Assembly (NCBI GenBank): GCA_027490595.1 | Contig: JAIXXU010000042.1 | Span: forward strand, 1 to 5,582 | Reading direction: 5' to 3' | Length of the DNA: 5,582 nt | Origin: Pseudomonadota bacterium | GTDB taxonomy: Bacteria; Bdellovibrionota_B; Oligoflexia; Silvanigrellales; Silvanigrellaceae | Shown: one piece after another, positions 92 to 5,552 of the stretch | How positions within the stretch are numbered: the stretch's first letter is position 1 | Layout of the letters: each line of letters starts with the position of its first letter | Position numbers and translations under genes: made by a program | The notes under the pieces: generated by a model | Told to the model about the DNA's origin: nothing | The model's input: only the letters and a program-made list of their open reading frames with translations | Database searches by the model: none

Positions 92-219
92 TAACGTCCG
101 GCGGCTTCACGTCAGTTGCGGCATTTGGAACTGAGTATTCTCGGCGTGGACAAAACGAAGTTATGGAAAAAGCGGTTACATTTTACACGAAAAGTAGCAA
201 TTGCGTGAAACCGCTGTTA
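92..219 (-). repeat. attC-like cassette repeat 1 (128 bp)
   Basis: The unit runs from TAAC to GTTA. Its arms pair as + strand 101-119 with 197-214: GCGG/CCGC, TTCACG/CGTGAA, CA/TG and TTGC/GCAA. There is one C-A mismatch (105/210), one G.T wobble (115/201) and one bulged T (112). Unpaired spacers next to the TAAC/GTTA core are unequal, GTCCG (96-100) against T (215). The loop is about 77 nt. Size, palindromic ends, a bulged base and position between gene cassettes match integron attC sites. Type: GGCGTGGAC in the middle, AGCGGTTACA block on the right. Strand is given by gene direction; true polarity is unsettled. Confidence 0.85.
171..215 (-). terminator. Terminator-like hairpin in repeat 1
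   Basis: Read on the minus (gene) strand just after the stop codon of the 230-688 gene, AGCGGTTTCA (215-206) can pair with TGTAACCGCT (180-171) at nine of ten positions across a 25-nt loop, followed by a short T run. It competes with the main repeat stem for the same arm. The loop is long for an intrinsic terminator, so termination is only a possibility. Weaker versions occur in repeat 3 (1457-1501) and repeat 8 (4909-4953). Confidence 0.35.
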
Positions 220-716
220 TGTGACGTTTCTATGGTCCATTCACATCTAATTCTTCAGTGAGTTGAAGGCTAAGATTAATCATTAGTGAGAAAAAGCAGT
301 TTCCTCCATCATCAACTTCTGAAAGTTCTTCTTTCCAATTAATTGCATTAGGTTCACAGTAACAATTTATATATATTATCTTCTCTCCTTTTTGATTTAT
401 TGCTGCAACATATTGTCTATTATATTTTTTTAGATTGATTGTGCTCCAATTATTTCCTTTATTATACTTATGTACGCTTTTGGCCAATAATTTTTCAGCA
501 AGCAAAATTTCGGAATTGTCTAAATCAGCTGATTTAAATTTTTGGAATCCGCGATATTTTTCAGTTTTAAGAACAGCAATTTTAGAAGTGTCTATTTTTA
601 TTTTTTGCACAGTACTTTTCCTAGCCTGAGATAGACAATTATTTGTTATAAATAAAATACAGAAAATCATGGCTACCAGGTTTTTCATATCGTTGGTGGT
701 TGAAATGTCACATAAC
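216..716 (-). mobile_element. Cassette 1, bounded by a unique 15-nt inverted repeat
   Basis: The left end GTTATGTGACGTTTC (216-230) and the right end (702-716), whose reverse complement is GTTATGTGACATTTC, agree at 14 of 15 positions and differ only at position 11 (G/A). They diverge at position 16. The unit carries one minus-strand gene. Exact cut points are unknown; an integron-type break between G and TT at either core would conserve these matched ends. Confidence 0.8.
230..688 (-). CDS. Secreted hypothetical protein with C-terminal DGG motif
   Basis: 152 aa. A signal peptide is evident: MKN, then a hydrophobic stretch (about 4-15), with cleavage probable near LSQA (19-22), so the protein is predicted to enter the periplasm or be exported. 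The mature part is basic and polar. Its C-terminal half carries INCYC (107-111), a Trp (118), VDDGGNCFF (125-133) and LDVNG (147-151). This spacing (Cys/Trp, Asp-Gly-Gly, Phe-Phe, then a closing Asn-Gly) resembles small exported hypothetical proteins often seen in Flavobacteriia, but I cannot attach a function. The start is the first ATG after the repeat, with a 24-nt leader and no Shine-Dalgarno. The stop codon (230-232) overlaps the last base of the cassette's terminal inverted repeat, so there is no 3' untranslated sequence other than the repeat. Confidence 0.85.
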   Translation of the reverse strand: MKNLVAMIFCILFITNNCLSQARKSTVQKIKIDTSKIAVLKTEKYRGFQKFKSADLDNSEILLAEKLLAKSVHKYNKGNNWSTINLKKYNRQYVAAINQKGEKIIYINCYCEPNAINWKEELSEVDDGGNCFFSLMINLSLQLTEELDVNGP

Positions 717-840
717 GTCCGGCGGCTTCACGTCAGTTGCGGCTTTTGGAACTGAGTATTCTCGGCGTGGACAAAACGAAGTTATGGAAAAAAGAAGTTC
801 ATTTTACAAGGAAAGCAGCAATTGCGTGAAACCGCTGTTA
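713..840 (-). repeat. attC-like cassette repeat 2 (128 bp)
   Basis: Same terminal arms, bulged T and unequal spacers as repeat 1. Variants: GCGGCTTTTGG instead of GCGGCATTTGG, GGCGTGGAC in the middle, and the AAGAAGTTCA block on the right, so it combines the middle of repeat 1 with the right block of repeats 4, 5, 7 and 9. Lies between cassettes 1 and 2. Confidence 0.85.
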
Positions 841-1382
841 TATGCCGTTTATTCATATAGTCCTTTATTTGCTTTATCAACAATATCTTTTATTTTCCAA
901 TCTTGAAGCATCCACGTTTTTCCATTATCAGAAGAAATGTATATCAACATGGATCTTATTGTTTGAGACTTATTTTTTAATGTTTCGGTAAATTGATAAA
1001 AAACTTCACCGATAATATTTTTATTGTCATATTCTATTTCAGAACCTAATATTTCATCTACTTGGAACGTTGATAGTTGGTTGAAATATTTTGTGACGTC
1101 CAGTTTGATTTTACTTGCCAAATCAGAATCTGAAAAATCTCCCACTTTAATTTTGCTATAGAAACTTTTGAGTTCGATGAAAAGTCTATTGTCCCATAAT
1201 TTAGATACTGAATCATATTTTTTATTCACATACAATTCAGTCAAATATTTTTGAGAAAGTTTTTCCAAAGAATTTTTCATATCCGTATCATTCTGAGGAT
1301 ATAAAAAATTAAAAGTTAATAAAGTAAAAACTACAATTATTGTCTTCATATTAGTCACGTTCGCGTTTAAATGGCATATAAC
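837..1382 (-). mobile_element. Cassette 2, bounded by a unique 15-nt inverted repeat
   Basis: The left end GTTATATGCCGTTTA (837-851) and the right end (1368-1382), whose reverse complement is GTTATATGCCATTTA, match except at position 11 (G/A) and diverge at position 16. The gene's TAA stop is the last three bases of the left repeat end. Confidence 0.8.
849..1349 (-). CDS. Secreted hypothetical protein, 166 aa
   Basis: A signal peptide spans about residues 1-19 (MKTIIVVFTLLTFNFLYPQN), so the protein is predicted to be exported. The mature protein is rich in Lys/Asp and predicted alpha-helix in its first half (about 24-90). Its second half looks like alternating strands, ending in ISSDNGKTWMLQDWKI (138-153). 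A helical N-half followed by a strand-rich C-half closing on a Trp-containing strand is compatible with an NTF2/SnoaL-like cone fold, but this is inference from pattern only and no catalytic residues can be named. The frame stays open upstream through the repeat to 1439. I reject that extension because it would translate repeat sequence and bury the signal peptide. The ATG at 1347-1349 leaves a 29-nt leader, in line with the neighbours. Confidence 0.85.
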   Translation of the reverse strand: MKTIIVVFTLLTFNFLYPQNDTDMKNSLEKLSQKYLTELYVNKKYDSVSKLWDNRLFIELKSFYSKIKVGDFSDSDLASKIKLDVTKYFNQLSTFQVDEILGSEIEYDNKNIIGEVFYQFTETLKNKSQTIRSMLIYISSDNGKTWMLQDWKIKDIVDKANKGLYE

Positions 1383-1505
1383 GTCCGGCGGCTTCACGTC
1401 AGTTGCGGCATTTGGAACTGAGTATTCTCGGCTGGACAAAACGAAGTTATGGAAAAAGCGTTTACATTTTACACGGAAAGTAGCAATTGCGTGAAACCGC
1501 TGTTA
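1379..1505 (-). repeat. attC-like cassette repeat 3 (127 bp)
   Basis: Same arms and bulged T as repeat 1. Carries the shorter GGCTGGAC middle (one base less) with an AGCGTTTACA right block, a combination different from repeats 1 and 2. The TAA inside its right-hand core GTTA (minus strand, 1503-1505) is the stop codon of the cassette 3 gene. Confidence 0.85.
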
Positions 1506-1978
1506 GCTGCTGTACCAATTTTTTACTATCCACATACTTAAATAAAAAGGAAAAGCGATAGTAAGAAACATTATAATACCTTGAATTAAGACTTCAATAA
1601 ATGTAGCTTTTTGAGATTCCTCGTCATTTGAATAACGCATGCCATAATACATAGGACGACCATATTTTTTATAAATTAATTTGTTAGCAATTTTATACAG
1701 TAAAAGAAACGTAACGCTCCATAAAGGAATTAATAAATTATGCCGTTCGTCAACTCTATAAGATTTATCGAAGTGGAGGAGAACAAAACCAATTATAAGT
1801 TGACATGAAAACAAAATCAAAGCCCTTTTGTAAAATATTTCATCACGGAAAATCTTTAACTTAATTGGATAAGCCCAAAGAATTATAAAGAGTAAAATTG
1901 TGGGCACTAAACTAAACCAATACAAAAAGTGAATCATTTCCAACATTAGTAGTCATTTTTTTAGGTATAGCAGCTAAC
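1502..1978 (-). mobile_element. Cassette 3, bounded by a unique 15-nt inverted repeat
   Basis: The left end GTTAGCTGCTGTACC (1502-1516) and the right end (1964-1978), reverse complement GTTAGCTGCTATACC, match except at position 11 (G/A) and diverge at position 16. The left end is coding: it specifies the last three residues and the stop of the membrane protein, while its mate lies in the untranslated leader. Confidence 0.8.
1503..1946 (-). CDS. Small four-helix integral membrane protein
   Basis: 147 aa. Four hydrophobic segments are visible at about 6-27, 41-59, 70-91 and 115-140. A charged loop lies between helices 1 and 2 (KLKIFRDEIFYKR), a short polar loop between 2 and 3 (HFDKSYRVDERHN), and a longer basic/tyrosine-rich loop between 3 and 4 (about 92-114). 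No family signature or catalytic motif is recognised, so it is an inner-membrane protein of unknown role. The start is ATG at 1944-1946, giving a 28-nt leader; an in-frame ATG three codons later is an alternative. The stop codon TAA is the TAAC core of the adjoining repeat, so the reading frame is closed by the cassette boundary itself. A different sequence at that junction would alter the C-terminus. Confidence 0.85.
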   Translation of the reverse strand: MLEMIHFLYWFSLVPTILLFIILWAYPIKLKIFRDEIFYKRALILFSCQLIIGFVLLHFDKSYRVDERHNLLIPLWSVTFLLLYKIANKLIYKKYGRPMYYGMRYSNDEESQKATFIEVLIQGIIMFLTIAFPFYLSMWIVKNWYSS

Positions 1979-2101
1979 GTCCGGCGGCTTCACGTCAGTT
2001 GCGGCATTTGGAACTGAGTATTCTCGGCTGGACAGAACGAAGTTATGTAAAAAAGAAGTTCATTTTACAAGGGAAGCAGCAATTGCGTGAAACCGCTGTT
2101 A
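1975..2101 (-). repeat. attC-like cassette repeat 4 (127 bp)
   Basis: Same arms and bulged T. GGCTGGAC middle with the AAGAAGTTCA right block, plus a private change: GTTATGTAAAAAAG where the other copies have GTTATGGAAAAA. Lies between cassettes 3 and 4. Confidence 0.85.
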
Positions 2102-2582
2102 GCAGACGTTTTAATATTTCACTAATTTCAAAATATGGGTTGCAAATATTTCAAAAGGATCTTCATTTTTTTTAAAAATATCGTCATTAATTGGCTTTAA
2201 TCTTCGTCTGACCATTTTGTATTTAAATTTCCCATTAGTGCTACGCCACTGTTTATCATTGCCGTCGGTCCTGCTTTTTAGTTCTAGATAAAGTATATTA
2301 TTGTTAATTTTCCATATGCCTTTCTGTTCGTCCGATCCAAGATTATCAAATTGAGAGTAGCTAGTTTGCCTGTAAAAGTCTCCATTTTTGTAAAGCACTA
2401 AGCTATCCAGTTCACTAGAAATGTATGATATTTTTGTGCCTCTGAATGTTTGTTGCTTGGCTCTTTTAAAACGATATACGGATTCGATGTCTTGTGAAAA
2501 GCATTTAAAGCAGATAAGGCATAATGTTAATTGGAATAAGAGATTTTTCATAAGGACGACTTTTTCGAAAATGTCTGCTAAC
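2098..2582 (-). mobile_element. Cassette 4, bounded by a unique 15-nt inverted repeat
   Basis: The left end GTTAGCAGACGTTTT (2098-2112) and the right end (2568-2582), reverse complement GTTAGCAGACATTTT, match except at position 11 (G/A) and diverge at position 16. The left end overlaps the gene's stop codon by two bases. Confidence 0.8.
2111..2551 (-). CDS. Secreted lipocalin-like hypothetical protein
   Basis: 146 aa. The signal peptide is about residues 1-20 (MKN, a Leu/Cys-rich core, then CFSQ), so the protein is exported. The mature part is predicted to be mostly beta-strand, with LVLYKNGDFYR (51-61) followed by KGIWKINNNILYLEL (77-91). This 'x-L-x-L-y-x-x-G-x-F ... G-x-W-x-x-x-x-x-x-L-x-L' pattern is common in small Bacteroidota lipocalin-like or META-like exported proteins that measure out a small beta-barrel. 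It then continues with a basic strand, FKYKMVRRRLKP (109-120). The match is to a general fold pattern, not to a named family, and no ligand can be proposed. It starts at the first ATG after the repeat with a 27-nt A-rich leader. Confidence 0.85.
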   Translation of the reverse strand: MKNLLFQLTLCLICFKCFSQDIESVYRFKRAKQQTFRGTKISYISSELDSLVLYKNGDFYRQTSYSQFDNLGSDEQKGIWKINNNILYLELKSRTDGNDKQWRSTNGKFKYKMVRRRLKPINDDIFKKNEDPFEIFATHILKLVKY

Positions 2583-2706
2583 GTCCGGCGGCTTCACGTC
2601 AGTTGCGGCATTTGGAACTGAGTATTCTCGGCGTGGACAGAACGAAGTTATGGAAAAAAGGAGTTCATTTTACACGAAAAGCAGCAATTGCGTGAAACCG
2701 CTGTTA
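2579..2706 (-). repeat. attC-like cassette repeat 5 (128 bp)
   Basis: Same arms and bulged T. GGCGTGGAC middle followed by AGAACG, with an AGGAGTTCA right block and a hybrid ACACGAAAAGCAGC tail. That tail mixes the CACGAAAAG of repeats 1 and 7 with the GCAGC of repeats 2, 4 and 9. Confidence 0.85.
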
Positions 2707-3355
2707 CAGGAAGCCACTATTTTTTGTTATTTTTCTAAATGAATTTGAAAACCTAATCCTATTTGTAAGTTTTTATAAGACGAATCCGCTAAGCTGTTAG
2801 GAATTAATTTTGCAGTATTATAATCAAGCGTTATTTCTAAAGCCACACTACTGTTGAAAAAAATTACAGGCCCAGCCTTAAATCCATATCCACTATATTT
2901 AGATTTACTATCTCCTGAAGATGCGCTAAATGTATAGCTTGCTTGAACTAAAAAATTGATTTGTTTATCTTCTTTTAATAAGTAGTATCTAGCAAATGGA
3001 CCAATTCCATACCCGAAATTATCTTCATAGTTTTTTATTTTAGAGTACCCAATGCTAATATTAGTTCCAGCAACAAACTTATCTACAAAGAAATAACCGA
3101 CGTTAGGCGAAATATTAATTCCTATTCCTTTATTGATAACTTCTGTTCCATTGTTTGAGAACGTATTTTCATAGGAAGAGAAATTTCCCGTTCCTCCAAC
3201 CAACCAGTTTCCTCTTGTGATTTGAGCATTTGTCTTTACCGCTAAAAAAAGTAAAGAAATAATTAAGTATTTAGTTGATTTCATATTTGGGATTTTCAAT
3301 TATCAAAGGTTTTACCAAGTTTCGAGATCACGCGGCTGGGGCGGTTTCCTGTAAC
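2703..3355 (-). mobile_element. Cassette 5, bounded by a unique but imperfect 15-nt inverted repeat
   Basis: The left end GTTACAGGAAGCCAC (2703-2717) and the right end (3341-3355), reverse complement GTTACAGGAAACCGC, match at positions 1-10, differ at 11 (G/A) as in the other cassettes, and have one extra mismatch at position 14. This is the only cassette with that defect. It also has the longest leader. Confidence 0.75.
2727..3284 (-). CDS. Outer-membrane beta-barrel-like protein
   Basis: 185 aa from ATG at 3282-3284. The signal peptide is residues 1-20 (MKSTKYLIISLLFLAVKTNA), with cleavage before QITRGNW. The mature chain is a run of short amphipathic strands rich in Gly, Tyr, Phe and Asn: NWLVGGTGNFS, GIGINISPNVGYFFVDKFVAGTNISIGYS, YGIGPFARYYL, INFLVQASYTFSAS, GFKAGPVIFF, ALEITLDY and LQIGLGFQIHL at the C-terminus. 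It ends close to an aromatic/hydrophobic strand, as outer-membrane barrels do. This fits the Bacteroidota 'outer membrane beta-barrel' domain type with about eight strands, placed in the outer membrane. Its specific function is not known. An upstream in-frame TTG at 3297-3299 would add five residues before the signal peptide; I prefer the ATG. Confidence 0.85.
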   Translation of the reverse strand: MKSTKYLIISLLFLAVKTNAQITRGNWLVGGTGNFSSYENTFSNNGTEVINKGIGINISPNVGYFFVDKFVAGTNISIGYSKIKNYEDNFGYGIGPFARYYLLKEDKQINFLVQASYTFSASSGDSKSKYSGYGFKAGPVIFFNSSVALEITLDYNTAKLIPNSLADSSYKNLQIGLGFQIHLEK

Positions 3356-3478
3356 GTCCGGCGGCTTCACGTCAGTTGCGGCTTTCGAAGCTGAGTACTC
3401 TCGGCTGGACAGAACGAAGTTATGGAAAAAGCGGTTACATTTTACAAAGAAAGCAGCAATTGCGTGAAACCGCTGTTG
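3352..3478 (-). repeat. attC-like cassette repeat 6 (127 bp, most diverged)
   Basis: Arms and bulged T as elsewhere. Its middle is the most diverged, with GCGGCTTTCGAAGCTGAGTACTC where the other copies are close to GCGGCATTTGGAACTGAGTATTC. GGCTGGAC middle and AGCGGTTACA right block. Its right-hand core is GTTG (3475-3478), not GTTA, and the distant partner core of the same cassette is correspondingly CAAC (4130-4133). Confidence 0.85.
3430..3474 (-). terminator. Terminator-like hairpin in repeat 6
   Basis: On the gene strand downstream of the 3488-4099 lipoprotein gene, AGCGGTTTCA (3474-3465) can pair with TGTAACCGCT (3439-3430) at nine of ten positions, with a 25-nt loop and a following T run. 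Same arrangement as in repeat 1. The long loop and the overlap with the attC-like stem keep confidence low. Confidence 0.35.
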
Positions 3479-4133
3479 TGCGCAGTTTTAATGTACGATC
3501 TTACCGAATTCATATTTATTATTTTTATCCTCGGCACTATATGAATTTATCACTCTGAATGTTTTAGGGTCAGCGTTTGGAATAATTTTATTTTCGTAAA
3601 TAATTTTACTTTTTGTCTTGCCGTAGTATTCATCTATAAATTCAAAATCATCTATGTCATCCAACAGTAATGTTTGCTTTCGGTAAATTAAAAAACTTTG
3701 TGCCTTAGCCCAAGGGTAACTAATAAGTTTTATTTTTTTAAAATCAACATTTTTAATCACGCAATCCTCTGTGCCATTGCCCAAAAAATATGCAGAATCT
3801 TTATCCTTAAAAATGTAGTTTCCAACAAATGAAAAAGTATTAGGGTCAATATTTTCTACAGCTTTTGCATCTATATAAAGCCTATTTTTATCTTTTGCAA
3901 ACAAAAAATCGTAATTACTATCAATTTTCATATTTTCAAAGGTCTTGGCATCAGCTTCATCAATTAATCGTTCATAGTTTCCATTGCCTTCATCCCAGCC
4001 CTGTATGTAAACTTTGTTGTTTTTCACAATATATTTCCGTTCCTGGCAACTGAATGCCAGAATACTTAAAATGGCCAGTAATAATATTTTCTTACACATG
4101 GTTCGTCATTTTTTGGGAAAAATTGCGCACAAC
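3475..4133 (-). mobile_element. Cassette 6, bounded by a unique 15-nt inverted repeat with GTTG/CAAC cores
   Basis: The left end GTTGTGCGCAGTTTT (3475-3489) and the right end (4119-4133), reverse complement GTTGTGCGCAATTTT, match except at position 11 (G/A). The change of core position 4 from A to G is present at both ends, 650 bp apart. Confidence 0.82.
3488..4099 (-). CDS. DKNYV-like lipoprotein
   Basis: 203 aa. A lipoprotein signal peptide is clear: MCKK, hydrophobic core, lipobox LAFSC with the lipidated Cys at 18, then QERK. The mature protein carries degenerate repeats in which 'D(P/A)xTF' alternates with 'DKxxxY': DADAKTF-like around 49-54, AKDKNRLYIDAK (68-79), IDPNTF (84-89), FKDKDSAYF (97-105), ADPKTF (176-181) and AEDKNNKYEFG (189-199). 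That alternation is the hallmark of the DKNYV family of exported beta-rich repeat proteins, whose molecular function is not established. It is expected to be anchored in a periplasmic-facing or surface membrane leaflet. It starts at ATG 4097-4099 with a 30-nt leader containing an A-tract and TGACGAAC that recurs upstream of the 4967-5395 gene. The stop overlaps the terminal inverted repeat. Confidence 0.88.
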   Translation of the reverse strand: MCKKILLLAILSILAFSCQERKYIVKNNKVYIQGWDEGNGNYERLIDEADAKTFENMKIDSNYDFLFAKDKNRLYIDAKAVENIDPNTFSFVGNYIFKDKDSAYFLGNGTEDCVIKNVDFKKIKLISYPWAKAQSFLIYRKQTLLLDDIDDFEFIDEYYGKTKSKIIYENKIIPNADPKTFRVINSYSAEDKNNKYEFGKIVH

Positions 4134-4256
4134 GTCCGGCGGCTTCACGTCAGTTGCGGCATTTGGAACTGAGTACTCTCGGCTGGACAAGACGAAGTTA
4201 TGGAAAAAAGAAGTTCATTTTACACGAAAAGTAGCAATTGCGTGAAACCGCTGTTA
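4130..4256 (-). repeat. attC-like cassette repeat 7 (127 bp)
   Basis: Same arms and bulged T. The left core is CAAC, matching the GTTG of repeat 6 across cassette 6, while its right core is the usual GTTA. GAGTACTC as in repeat 6, GGCTGGACAAGACG middle, AAGAAGTTCA right block and the CACGAAAAGTAGC tail of repeat 1: a mosaic. Confidence 0.85.
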
Positions 4257-4834
4257 TGGGCAGTAATAACTTAGTCACATGCAACTTGAATCACCGTAAT
4301 CTTTTTATTTGTATTATCTACAGCAAACCCGCACACGAATTCTTCCAGCTCAAAAGCACCTAATTCATTGAATTTTGAAATTGATGGAGAAAATAAATAT
4401 AATTCTAAACCCATTATTTCTTGAAAAATAAGGGAAACTTGATTCTTAAATTTTTTAAAATTCGGATCTTGACGATAGCTTTCATAAAAATCAGACGTTA
4501 GTTTGTCAAACTCTTTTTCCAATTCAAAAATTGATGACTTTTTATAATCTGATAAGTCAAGAGCTTTAATGTCATAAGAGCCAAATTCATATAATTGAAA
4601 AATTGATCTTTCTCCAAACTCATTAGTATGATCACAAGTATAGCCTCCCACATATTTTCGTGCTGAATCAAAATCCTGTGGTGCGTTAATAAATTCATGA
4701 ATAACGTGCTCAGCATCAAATTCAGCAAACGCGTCAAAGGAGAATTCAGCTTTTGTAAATCCTAAATAGCTGTGCGCAAAAAAGATATTTGAATTTTCTC
4801 TGAAGGTCATTTGTGGTGAATTATTGCCCATAAC
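4253..4834 (-). mobile_element. Cassette 7, bounded by a unique 15-nt inverted repeat
   Basis: The left end GTTATGGGCAGTAAT (4253-4267) and the right end (4820-4834), reverse complement GTTATGGGCAATAAT, match except at position 11 (G/A) and diverge at position 16. The stop codon lies three bases beyond the left end. Confidence 0.8.
4271..4810 (-). CDS. Hypothetical cytosolic acidic protein
   Basis: 179 aa from ATG at 4808-4810, the only complete gene here with neither a signal peptide nor membrane segments. It is acidic and rich in Phe, Glu and Asp (for example KAEFSFDAFAEFDAEHVIHEF in the first 45 residues), with a predicted helical centre (SDYKKSSIFELEKEFDKLTSDFYES) and three Cys in GGYTCDH, EFVCGF and VACD at the C-terminus. 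No family is recognised. Start choice: this ATG gives a 20-nt leader like those of the neighbours. An in-frame ATG at 4829-4831 would add seven residues but begins inside the cassette core (GTTATG), and the frame stays open into the repeat to 4891; both are less likely. A different-frame minus-strand ORF at 4498-4737 lies inside this gene and is a shadow. Confidence 0.78.
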   Translation of the reverse strand: MTFRENSNIFFAHSYLGFTKAEFSFDAFAEFDAEHVIHEFINAPQDFDSARKYVGGYTCDHTNEFGERSIFQLYEFGSYDIKALDLSDYKKSSIFELEKEFDKLTSDFYESYRQDPNFKKFKNQVSLIFQEIMGLELYLFSPSISKFNELGAFELEEFVCGFAVDNTNKKITVIQVACD

Positions 4835-4957
4835 GTCCGGCGGCTTCACGTCAGTTGCGGCATTTGGAACTGAGTATTCTCGGCTGGACACAACGAAGTT
4901 ATGGAAAAAGTGGTTACATTTTACAAGGTTAGCAGCAATTGCGTGAAACCGCTGTTA
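4831..4957 (-). repeat. attC-like cassette repeat 8 (127 bp)
   Basis: Same arms and bulged T. GGCTGGACACAACG middle, AGTGGTTACA right block and a private CAAGGTTAGCAGC tail. Lies between cassettes 7 and 8. Confidence 0.85.
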
Positions 4958-5428
4958 GCTGAAGGCCTAGTTTATTAAAAATAATTTTCCTCGATGTTTT
5001 GTTTTTTCGAGTTCATTTGAATAAGTTTTTCGGTATTTTATATTGTTTTTATCTTGTAAATCAATTTCAAAAACAGTAGATCCGAAATTGCTATGGTCAA
5101 TAAAGATCGAATCGCCATTTTCTTGAATTTCACGGATGTAATTAGAAGTATGCGACATTATTAAATCCTCAAATATAATTAGTTTCTTGGTAGAACTTAA
5201 AGTGACAACTTTAAACTTACCAGTATGATCTCCATTATTAGAGGTTGACCAAACATATGTGTTATTTTTTAGGTTTAGAACATAAGACATTCCATTTTCA
5301 TAGTCTGTTTTATACGTTCCTGATAATTGCTTTCGAGCTGCACAACTAATAAAAATCAGTCCTATGATTGTAATAATTGGAAGTTTATTGAACATTGTTC
5401 GTCATTTTTGGTAAGGCTTTCAGCTAAC
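4954..5428 (-). mobile_element. Cassette 8, bounded by a unique 15-nt inverted repeat
   Basis: The left end GTTAGCTGAAGGCCT (4954-4968) and the right end (5414-5428), reverse complement GTTAGCTGAAAGCCT, match except at position 11 (G/A) and diverge at position 16. The left end overlaps the gene's TAG stop. Confidence 0.8.
4967..5395 (-). CDS. Small lipoprotein, lipocalin-like pattern
   Basis: 142 aa. Lipoprotein signal peptide MFNKLPIITIIGLIFISC with the lipobox Cys at 18, then AARKQ. The mature chain opens with LSGTYKTD (24-31) and continues as likely beta-strands: SYVLNLKNNTYVWSTSN, HTGKFKVVTLSSTKKLIIFEDL, DSIFIDHSN and STVFEIDLQ. A 'G-T/x-Y ... L-x-L-x-x-x-x-x-Y ... G-x-F/W-x' order after a lipobox is typical of small lipocalin-like lipoproteins of Bacteroidota. 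This is a fold-level guess; no binding residues can be named. It starts at ATG 5393-5395 with a 29-nt leader that shares AAAAATGACGAAC with the leader of the 3488-4099 lipoprotein. The basic C-terminus (KTKHRGKLFLIN) ends at a TAG that overlaps the cassette's terminal inverted repeat. Confidence 0.85.
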   Translation of the reverse strand: MFNKLPIITIIGLIFISCAARKQLSGTYKTDYENGMSYVLNLKNNTYVWSTSNNGDHTGKFKVVTLSSTKKLIIFEDLIMSHTSNYIREIQENGDSIFIDHSNFGSTVFEIDLQDKNNIKYRKTYSNELEKTKHRGKLFLIN

Positions 5429-5552
5429 GTCCGGCGGCTTCACGTCAGTTGCGGCATTTGGAACTGAGTATTCTCGGCGTGGACAAAACGAAGTTATGGA
5501 AAAAAGAAGTTCAATTTACAAGGAAAGCAGCAATTGCGTGAAACCGCTGTTA
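5425..5552 (-). repeat. attC-like cassette repeat 9 (128 bp)
   Basis: Same arms and bulged T. GGCGTGGAC middle with an AAGAAGTTCAATTTAC right block (ATTTT changed to AATTT). Nearly the same combination as repeat 2 but with the GCATTTGG variant. Its right side opens the next cassette. Confidence 0.85.

What the first reader, a model, noticed from the sequence alone, without database searches (positions are those of the whole stretch)
216..5428. Each cassette has its own 15-nt terminal inverted repeat of fixed 10+1+4 architecture
For all eight complete cassettes, the sequence read inward from GTT at the left and right ends is the same at positions 1-10, different at 11, the same at 12-15 (one exception at position 14 in cassette 5) and different again at 16. 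The sequences differ between cassettes, so this is covariation and not a shared repeat. The classical integron core gives only a 7-base match (GTTRRRY/RYYYAAC). A longer match of constant length implies either a recombinase reading an extended stem or a cassette-forming process that copies one end to the other.
Basis: seen in the sequence. Interest (0 to 1): 0.92.

Follow-up and report, generated by a model that had tools for sequence, protein, structure and literature searches.

The report
Integron-like cassettes with self-matched ends
Each gene cassette in this array carries two ends that match each other but not their neighbours, so they would pair only after the cassette is cut out as a circle; related arrays in Flavobacterium lie beside an enzyme that lacks the integron integrase's hallmark insertion, so this is likely a different way of running an integron.

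Summary
In the window 8 of 8 cassettes match at positions 1-10 and differ at 11; 7 of 8 match at 12-15. In the window's assembly (54 complete cassettes) matching is 91-100 % at 1-10, 0 of 54 at 11, 87-96 % at 12-15, 2 of 54 at 16, then background. Position 11 is G (left end) against A (right end, reverse-complemented) in 51 of 54. Flavobacterium sp. BFFFF1 and F. buctense, the latter with differing repeat cores, follow the same rule, and 23 of 40 sampled recombinase loci of that genus show it nearby. At array junctions the ends do not match (10/10 in 0 of 45), so they are predicted to pair only in the excised circle, lengthening the attC-like hairpin. The array-adjacent recombinase lacks the IntI-specific insertion. 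Best reading: an integron-like platform run by a Xer-like recombinase, with an extended R stem. Recombination itself is untested, and the window's own assembly shows no close relative of that recombinase and may be mis-binned.

The parts
96..215 (+). attC-like repeat core 1 (between AAC and GTT)
216..716 (-). cassette 1; matched ends 216-230 and 702-716; ORF 230-688
   Evidence: 97 % identical cassette with the same arms in G705
717..836 (+). attC-like repeat core 2
837..1382 (-). cassette 2; matched ends 837-851 and 1368-1382; ORF 849-1349
1383..1501 (+). attC-like repeat core 3
1502..1978 (-). cassette 3; matched ends 1502-1516 and 1964-1978; ORF 1503-1946
1979..2097 (+). attC-like repeat core 4
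2098..2582 (-). cassette 4; matched ends 2098-2112 and 2568-2582; ORF 2111-2551
2583..2702 (+). attC-like repeat core 5
2703..3355 (-). cassette 5; matched ends 2703-2717 and 3341-3355 (mismatch also at position 14); weak outer-membrane beta-barrel match, under the Pfam cut-off, in its ORF
3356..3474 (+). attC-like repeat core 6
3475..4133 (-). cassette 6; matched ends 3475-3489 and 4119-4133; ORF 3488-4099, DKNYY family PF13644
4134..4252 (+). attC-like repeat core 7
4253..4834 (-). cassette 7; matched ends 4253-4267 and 4820-4834; ORF within 4271-4831
4835..4953 (+). attC-like repeat core 8
4954..5428 (-). cassette 8; matched ends 4954-4968 and 5414-5428; ORF 4967-5395
5429..5548 (+). attC-like repeat core 9

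Best explanation
The matched ends are likely the two halves of each cassette's own attC-like site, which lie a gene apart in the array and are predicted to pair when the cassette is excised as a circle, adding a stem of 10 bp, one G-T pair and 4 bp to the repeat's hairpin that a Xer-like recombinase lacking the IntI-specific insertion would read as the mark of an insertable circle. Shown: matching within a cassette and not at junctions; G/A at 11 in nearly all; a recombinase gene, a recurrent putative attI and cassette arrays in that order and one direction in relatives; absence of the IntI insertion in that recombinase; near-identical cassettes with intact ends among different neighbours. Inferred: that this recombinase moves the cassettes, that it acts on the folded antisense (bottom) strand, that the stem favours insertion of circles over re-excision, and that the G-T pair (A-C on the other strand) helps strand choice.
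For: Ends match 10/10 in 47/54, 53/72 and 18/23 cassettes of three genomes but at 0/45, 1/61 and 1/20 junctions; positions 4-10 of junctions are no better than shuffled neighbours. Predicted DNA folds: the same core closed on its own cassette is lower than the array site in 45 of 45 (mean -32.0 against -22.5 kcal/mol), and the + (antisense) strand is lower in 52 of 52 circles. In arm-only folds (47 cassettes) G/A at 11 gives the + strand a 1.6 kcal/mol edge over the sense strand against 0.4-0.45 when it is a Watson-Crick pair. Homologous core-defined cassettes, no filter on arms: 20 pairs, interiors 87 % identical on average, arm sites 417 of 440 unchanged, 7 positions changed on both sides and 9 on one, where about 0.6 two-sided would be expected if sides were independent. 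Recombinase at G096:C36:100545-101594; the first cassette starts about 120 nt after its stop, same direction. 23 of 40 fetched loci have at least 3 G/A pairs, 181 of 252 chained pairs in those 23 being G/A without a gap; in all 23 the cassette sense strand (by majority) is the recombinase strand. attI-like motif in 33 of 42 loci by a loose pattern, 28 of them ending 97-160 nt after the stop. Of nine Pfam recombinase hits in G096 and G097, two are this type; five others scanned are two XerD-like, two XerC-like and one without a family, none over the IntI cut-off; two were not scanned. Cassettes 90-100 % identical between assemblies have non-homologous neighbours in 13 of 13 comparable slots.
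Against: No recombination was observed. The window's own assembly (72.5 % complete) has no close relative of the recombinase (best E 6e-6). 17 of 40 recombinase loci show fewer than 3 G/A pairs; three of them end within about 3 kb at a contig end, the other 14 do not, so the recombinase family is not always with an array. The literature seen (PMC7790495, abstract and passages) holds that Xer proteins lack I2 and with it the means to handle single-stranded sites as IntI does. The boundary at 16 is blurred in F. buctense (12 of 23 match). In a set filtered for good arms, the most diverged pairs (interior 75 %) have arms only 65 % identical, so arms are not always slow to change. Fold energies are for naked DNA at 37 C.
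Confidence: 0.66

Rival explanations
1. The ends match because a cassette-forming process copies one end onto the other at birth (for example snap-back or template-switch synthesis), and the match is a scar and not a working stem.
For: Both arms are matched in cassettes with unrelated genes. In 48 homologous pairs that passed an arm filter, 82 positions changed on both sides and 15 on one (7 of the 82 from a pair joined only by a shared insertion), and the most diverged pairs have arms less alike than interiors; repeated copying would also give this.
Against: That count favours paired arms by its filter; without the filter it is 7 two-sided and 9 one-sided in 20 pairs, with arms more conserved (95 %) than interiors (87 %). 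A scar would decay at the interior's rate; pairs 76 %, 87 % and 88 % alike inside have identical arms. Copying does not explain one constant G/A at 11 across differing cores, nor its retention beside an inserted T. Pairs are not independent, so this is not decisive.
Confidence: 0.15
2. Double-stranded inverted repeats: a recombinase or transposase recognises the cassette ends as duplex DNA, and G/A at 11 tells left from right.
For: A fixed base difference could polarise the ends; GTT, position 4 (A 48 of 54) and position 8 (G 52 of 54 left) are nearly constant.
Against: Duplex reading needs no pairing between freely varying bases at 5-7, 9, 10 and 12-15. The repeat core is a folded palindrome with unpaired bases as in attC.
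Confidence: 0.08
3. RNA panhandle: the ends pair in the cassette transcript and serve its stability or translation.
For: Ends flank the coding sequence; in 50 of 54 cassettes the longest ATG ORF is on the sense strand and in 35 of those 50 the stop ends 11-18 nt before the cassette end.
Against: On the sense strand position 11 is an A-C mismatch, and the sense fold is the weaker one in 52 of 52. Classical integron ends lack the fixed mismatch and the 12-15 block.
Confidence: 0.05
4. Small-sample accident or selection artefact.
For: The first list had eight cassettes.
Against: 54, 72 and 23 cassettes in three genomes and a core-independent scan give the same layout; 0 of 97 classical pairs do.
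Confidence: 0.01

Closest known systems
Integrons (IntI / attI / attC), chromosomal type
   Same: Array of mostly single-gene cassettes in one direction separated by palindromic sites ending in AAC and GTT; recombinase gene and putative attI at one end (in relatives); predicted antisense-strand hairpin more stable; self-matching cassette ends.
   Different: Recombinase lacks the IntI-specific insertion; ends carry 10 bp + fixed G-T + 4 bp where classical ends have an uninterrupted run, mostly 9-12 nt; GTTRRRY not kept (position 5 is T or C in 34 of 54); recombinase gene points towards the array with the putative attI behind its stop codon, where classical intI points away (recalled).
Reverse-orientation integrons of spirochaetes
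   Same: Recombinase and cassettes in one direction; their reverse orientation is mentioned in PMC9668308 (passage read).
   Different: They carry IntI proteins; end layout not examined here.
XerA / XerD recombinases and dif
   Same: Closest solved structures by sequence are XerA-type and XerD; NCBIfam's best model is XerA_Arch, 208.8 bits under its 220 cut-off.
   Different: Extra N-terminal segment of about 70 residues and association with cassette arrays.

Membership tests
Integron | Tyrosine recombinase gene beside the cassette array | tested here: met
   In relatives: Flavobacterium BFFFF1 and 23 of 40 fetched loci. Not seen in the window's own assembly as held
Integron | IntI-specific insertion / I2 around patch III in the recombinase (PMC9668308, PMC7790495, PMC8138268, passages) | tested here: not met
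   TIGR02249 183 and 207 bits, under the 265 cut-off and split in two stretches, for the G096 and G097 proteins; against IntI4 (2a3v) query residues 251 to 276 span chain residues 178 to 246, about 43 fewer. The other loci's proteins were not scanned one by one
Integron | attC sites: palindromic, AAC/GTT ends, folded single strand with unpaired bases, bottom strand more stable | tested here: met
   (predicted folds)
Integron | R box consensus GTTRRRY / RYYYAAC | tested here: not met
   position 5 is T or C in 34 of 54; GTT itself 54 of 54
Integron | attI site next to the recombinase gene | tested here: inconclusive
   motif ending in AGTT, 33 of 42 loci with a loose pattern, 28 of them 97-160 nt after the stop, 5 elsewhere; no chance control; activity untested
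Integron | Cassettes mostly one promoterless gene in array direction | tested here: inconclusive
   50 of 54 have their longest ATG ORF (70 aa or more) on the sense strand, 4 have none that long; absence of promoters not tested
Integron | Recombinase-dependent excision and insertion through a folded single strand | not testable with these tools
   needs experiments
Classical IntI cassette ends | Uninterrupted self-match, no fixed mismatch at 11 | tested here: not met
   control 97 pairs from 21 of 40 fetched loci: 61 % match at 11, 0 exact 10+1+4, G/A 3 of 97; with the same core spacing as for Flavobacterium 60 pairs, 58 % at 11, 0 exact

The most novel reading that the evidence does not exclude
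Flavobacterium runs a second kind of integron in which a Xer-like recombinase without the I2 insertion recombines folded single-stranded attC-like sites, using a 15-nt self-complementary stem with an almost obligatory G-T pair in place of, or in addition to, IntI's recognition of extrahelical bases; pairing that exists only in the circle would make insertion favoured over re-excision and so act as an assembly ratchet.
Probability: 0.42. Interest if true: 0.88.

Novelty: new variant of a known kind. Interest (0 to 1): 0.74.

Why it matters
The step from double-strand to single-strand recombination in integrons is ascribed to acquisition of the I2 helix (PMC7790495, abstract). Arrays of attC-like cassettes beside a recombinase that lacks it make that claim directly testable. 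Relatives of the recombinase are in 211 of 398 genomes sampled from the genus of Flavobacterium sp. BFFFF1, whereas the passage read of IntegronFinder 2.0 (PMC9024848) names Salinibacter ruber as the complete integron newly found within Bacteroidetes, so a large cassette reservoir may have gone unannotated. The end layout gives a simple signature to find more, and a sharp mutational test.

Tried and rejected
Rfam, plasmid and phage collections and a viral pattern scan (3 hits without a model match) gave nothing. The repeat pattern with up to 3 mismatches in 96 relatives, and a covariance model in 58 genomes of the class, matched G000 alone. The genome scan also gave single matches in several other organisms, which were not examined. 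One search used a badly chosen pattern and is not used. Wobble direction of the rare mismatches did not separate the strands (read by eye, no test). The 99.9 % pair with different arms in L200 is joined by a 1.4-kb stretch that leaves out the first several hundred bases of each cassette, probably an insertion sequence, and not arm rewriting. The two-sided change count was biased by its own arm filter; one search repeats it without. The first circle folds took the neighbouring cassette's core; repeated with the own core, with little change. The fold search put XerA and IntI4 chains first, TM about 0.4-0.6, with a model weak near the catalytic end, so it adds little. In the listings of eight literature searches (titles and starts of abstracts) no report of this system was seen; the library holds open-licence PMC papers only.
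Full report
Observation. The window is the whole of contig C52 of assembly G000: nine copies of a 119-120 nt repeat core and eight complete cassettes. Each cassette begins with GTT and ends with AAC, and its first 15 nt match the reverse complement of its last 15 except at position 11, and at 14 in cassette 5. The same assembly has 61 cores on nine contigs, giving 54 cassettes: 49-54 of 54 match at each of positions 1-10, 0 at 11, 47-52 at 12-15, 2 at 16, and background after. Position 11 is G against A in 51 of 54; in two of the other three one gap restores it by eye, of which one search scored one. The bases at 5-7, 9, 10 and 12-15 vary between cassettes.

Generality. A pattern scan of species genomes found the repeat in Flavobacterium sp. 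BFFFF1 (G096) and F. buctense (G097). G096 gave 78 stretches between cores; 66 have G/A at 11 and 2 match there. F. buctense has cores of several other sequences sharing mainly the outer motif, and 23 cassettes: 21 G/A, 0 matches at 11, 19-23 matches at 12-15; here position 16 matches in 12. A core-independent scan used 40 loci of 39 genomes beside related recombinase genes, chosen by me from the matches for similarity and contig length. It found 301 chained pairs in 35 loci, chance pairs included; the strand of each locus was set by its G/A majority: 60 % match at 10, 7 % at 11, 67-77 % at 12-15, 17 % at 16. Of the 301, 245 fit a layout, 208 ungapped, 34 with one extra base in the left end (32 of these with G/A) and 3 in the right; 56 fit none (which preferred G/A among equal gap placements).

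What the ends are. In integrons a cassette runs from within R' (GTT...) to the end of its attC, so the two R halves of one site belong to one cassette and meet in the circle (established knowledge). That is the pattern seen: 10/10 matches in 47 of 54, 53 of 72 and 18 of 23 cassettes, but at 0 of 45, 1 of 61 and 1 of 20 array junctions, and junction positions 4-10 equal shuffled neighbours. The core folds as a hairpin with a mismatch and a bulged T, more stable on the antisense strand. Closing a core on its own cassette lowers the predicted energy in 45 of 45, by 9.5 kcal/mol on average; the antisense strand is lower in 52 of 52. On that strand position 11 is a G-T pair, on the other an A-C mismatch; in arm-only folds this widens the strand difference from about 0.4 to 1.6 kcal/mol. 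These are computations on naked DNA.

Maintenance. Among 149 core-defined cassettes, 20 homologous pairs under 99.9 % identity have interiors 87 % alike on average and arm sites 95 % alike; 7 arm positions changed on both sides and 9 on one, of 220. A wider set of 48 pairs that required good arms gives 82 and 15 of 528, but its filter favours paired arms, 7 of the 82 come from a pair joined by a shared insertion, and in its most diverged bin (15 pairs) arms are less alike (65 %) than interiors (75 %). So pairing is kept while sequence drifts; conservation alone does not separate selection from copying. Cassettes 90-100 % alike between assemblies sit among different neighbours (13 of 13 comparable slots), so cassettes have moved with their ends intact.

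Classical control. 136 of 369 genomes of another class had IntI over the NCBI cut-off. From 40 loci fetched (several ended within about 2 kb at a contig end), the scan, with core spacing 45-170 in place of 80-190 nt, gave 97 pairs in 21 loci: match 61 % at 10, 61 % at 11, 40 % at 12, background from 13; exact 10+1+4 in 0 of 97. With the same spacing as for Flavobacterium: 60 pairs, 65, 58 and 30 %, 0 exact. A published statement gives 9-11 consecutive complementary nt for most cassettes (PMC2727003, passages). So extended self-matching is general, and the fixed wobble plus four more pairs sets this system apart.

The recombinase. In G096 a 350-aa tyrosine recombinase lies upstream of the first cassette, in the direction of the cassette genes. 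Relatives at E up to 1e-50 are in 211 of 398 genomes sampled from the genus. In all 23 of 40 loci with three or more G/A pairs the majority cassette sense strand is the recombinase strand. Behind the stop codon a motif such as CATATATACTAGTT recurs, often about 105 nt downstream, with the first cassette following. The G096 and G097 proteins score under the cut-offs of the NCBIfam models, XerA_Arch best; aligned with IntI4 the G096 protein lacks about 43 residues where IntI carries its specific insertion. Its N-terminal segment has two invariant tryptophans in 45 aligned sequences and is predicted as a small alpha/beta unit. Whether it reads positions 12-15 is a guess.

Host. G000 is 72.5 % complete; none of 57 other genomes of its class gave a match to the repeat model, its best recombinase relative is weak, and four cassettes are 99.8-100 % identical to those of Flavobacterium BFFFF1. 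The nine array contigs are short and repeat-filled (flanking genes were not searched for systematically). Mis-binned Flavobacterium contigs, or recent transfer, are likely; this does not affect the finding.

Verdict. A real, widespread and specific signature of an integron-like platform with a non-IntI recombinase. Mechanism inferred.

Noticed in passing
window and L009-L017, position 16 of cassette ends: Position 16 avoids matching (2 of 54) and in 37 of 54 the same base stands on the + strand at both ends (46 of 78 in G096, 4 of 23 in F. buctense). Stop codons often lie just there; the cause is open.
   Followed up: partly
G000 array contigs (L009-L017): Four cassettes are 99.8-100 % identical to Flavobacterium BFFFF1 cassettes while no class relative has the repeat; probably mis-binned or recently transferred.
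   Followed up: partly
L014:6149-6492, L091:16345-16689, L094:7207-7550: A family of short cassettes (about 344 nt) recurs in G000 and G096; ORF content not checked one by one; possibly non-coding.
   Followed up: no
L216:724-3988: Seven cassettes of about 364 nt with the same ends in tandem; interiors not compared.
   Followed up: no
L106 / L018 (G000:C144): Two tyrosine recombinase matches in a row and a third small gene, like three-gene recombinase islands; the resemblance is recalled, not tested.
   Followed up: no
L090:4644-4754 and 5394-5512: Weak matches to the repeat model upstream of and near the recombinase gene start, possibly decayed sites.
   Followed up: no
downstream of recombinase stops, L090, L105, L179-L218: A TAnnTTTG, TAnnTTAG or TAnnTTTA motif (Bacteroidota -7 element, recalled) within 60 nt of the stop in 32 of 42 loci (no chance control), and inverted repeats before the putative attI by eye; could be a cassette promoter and a regulatory element.
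   Followed up: partly
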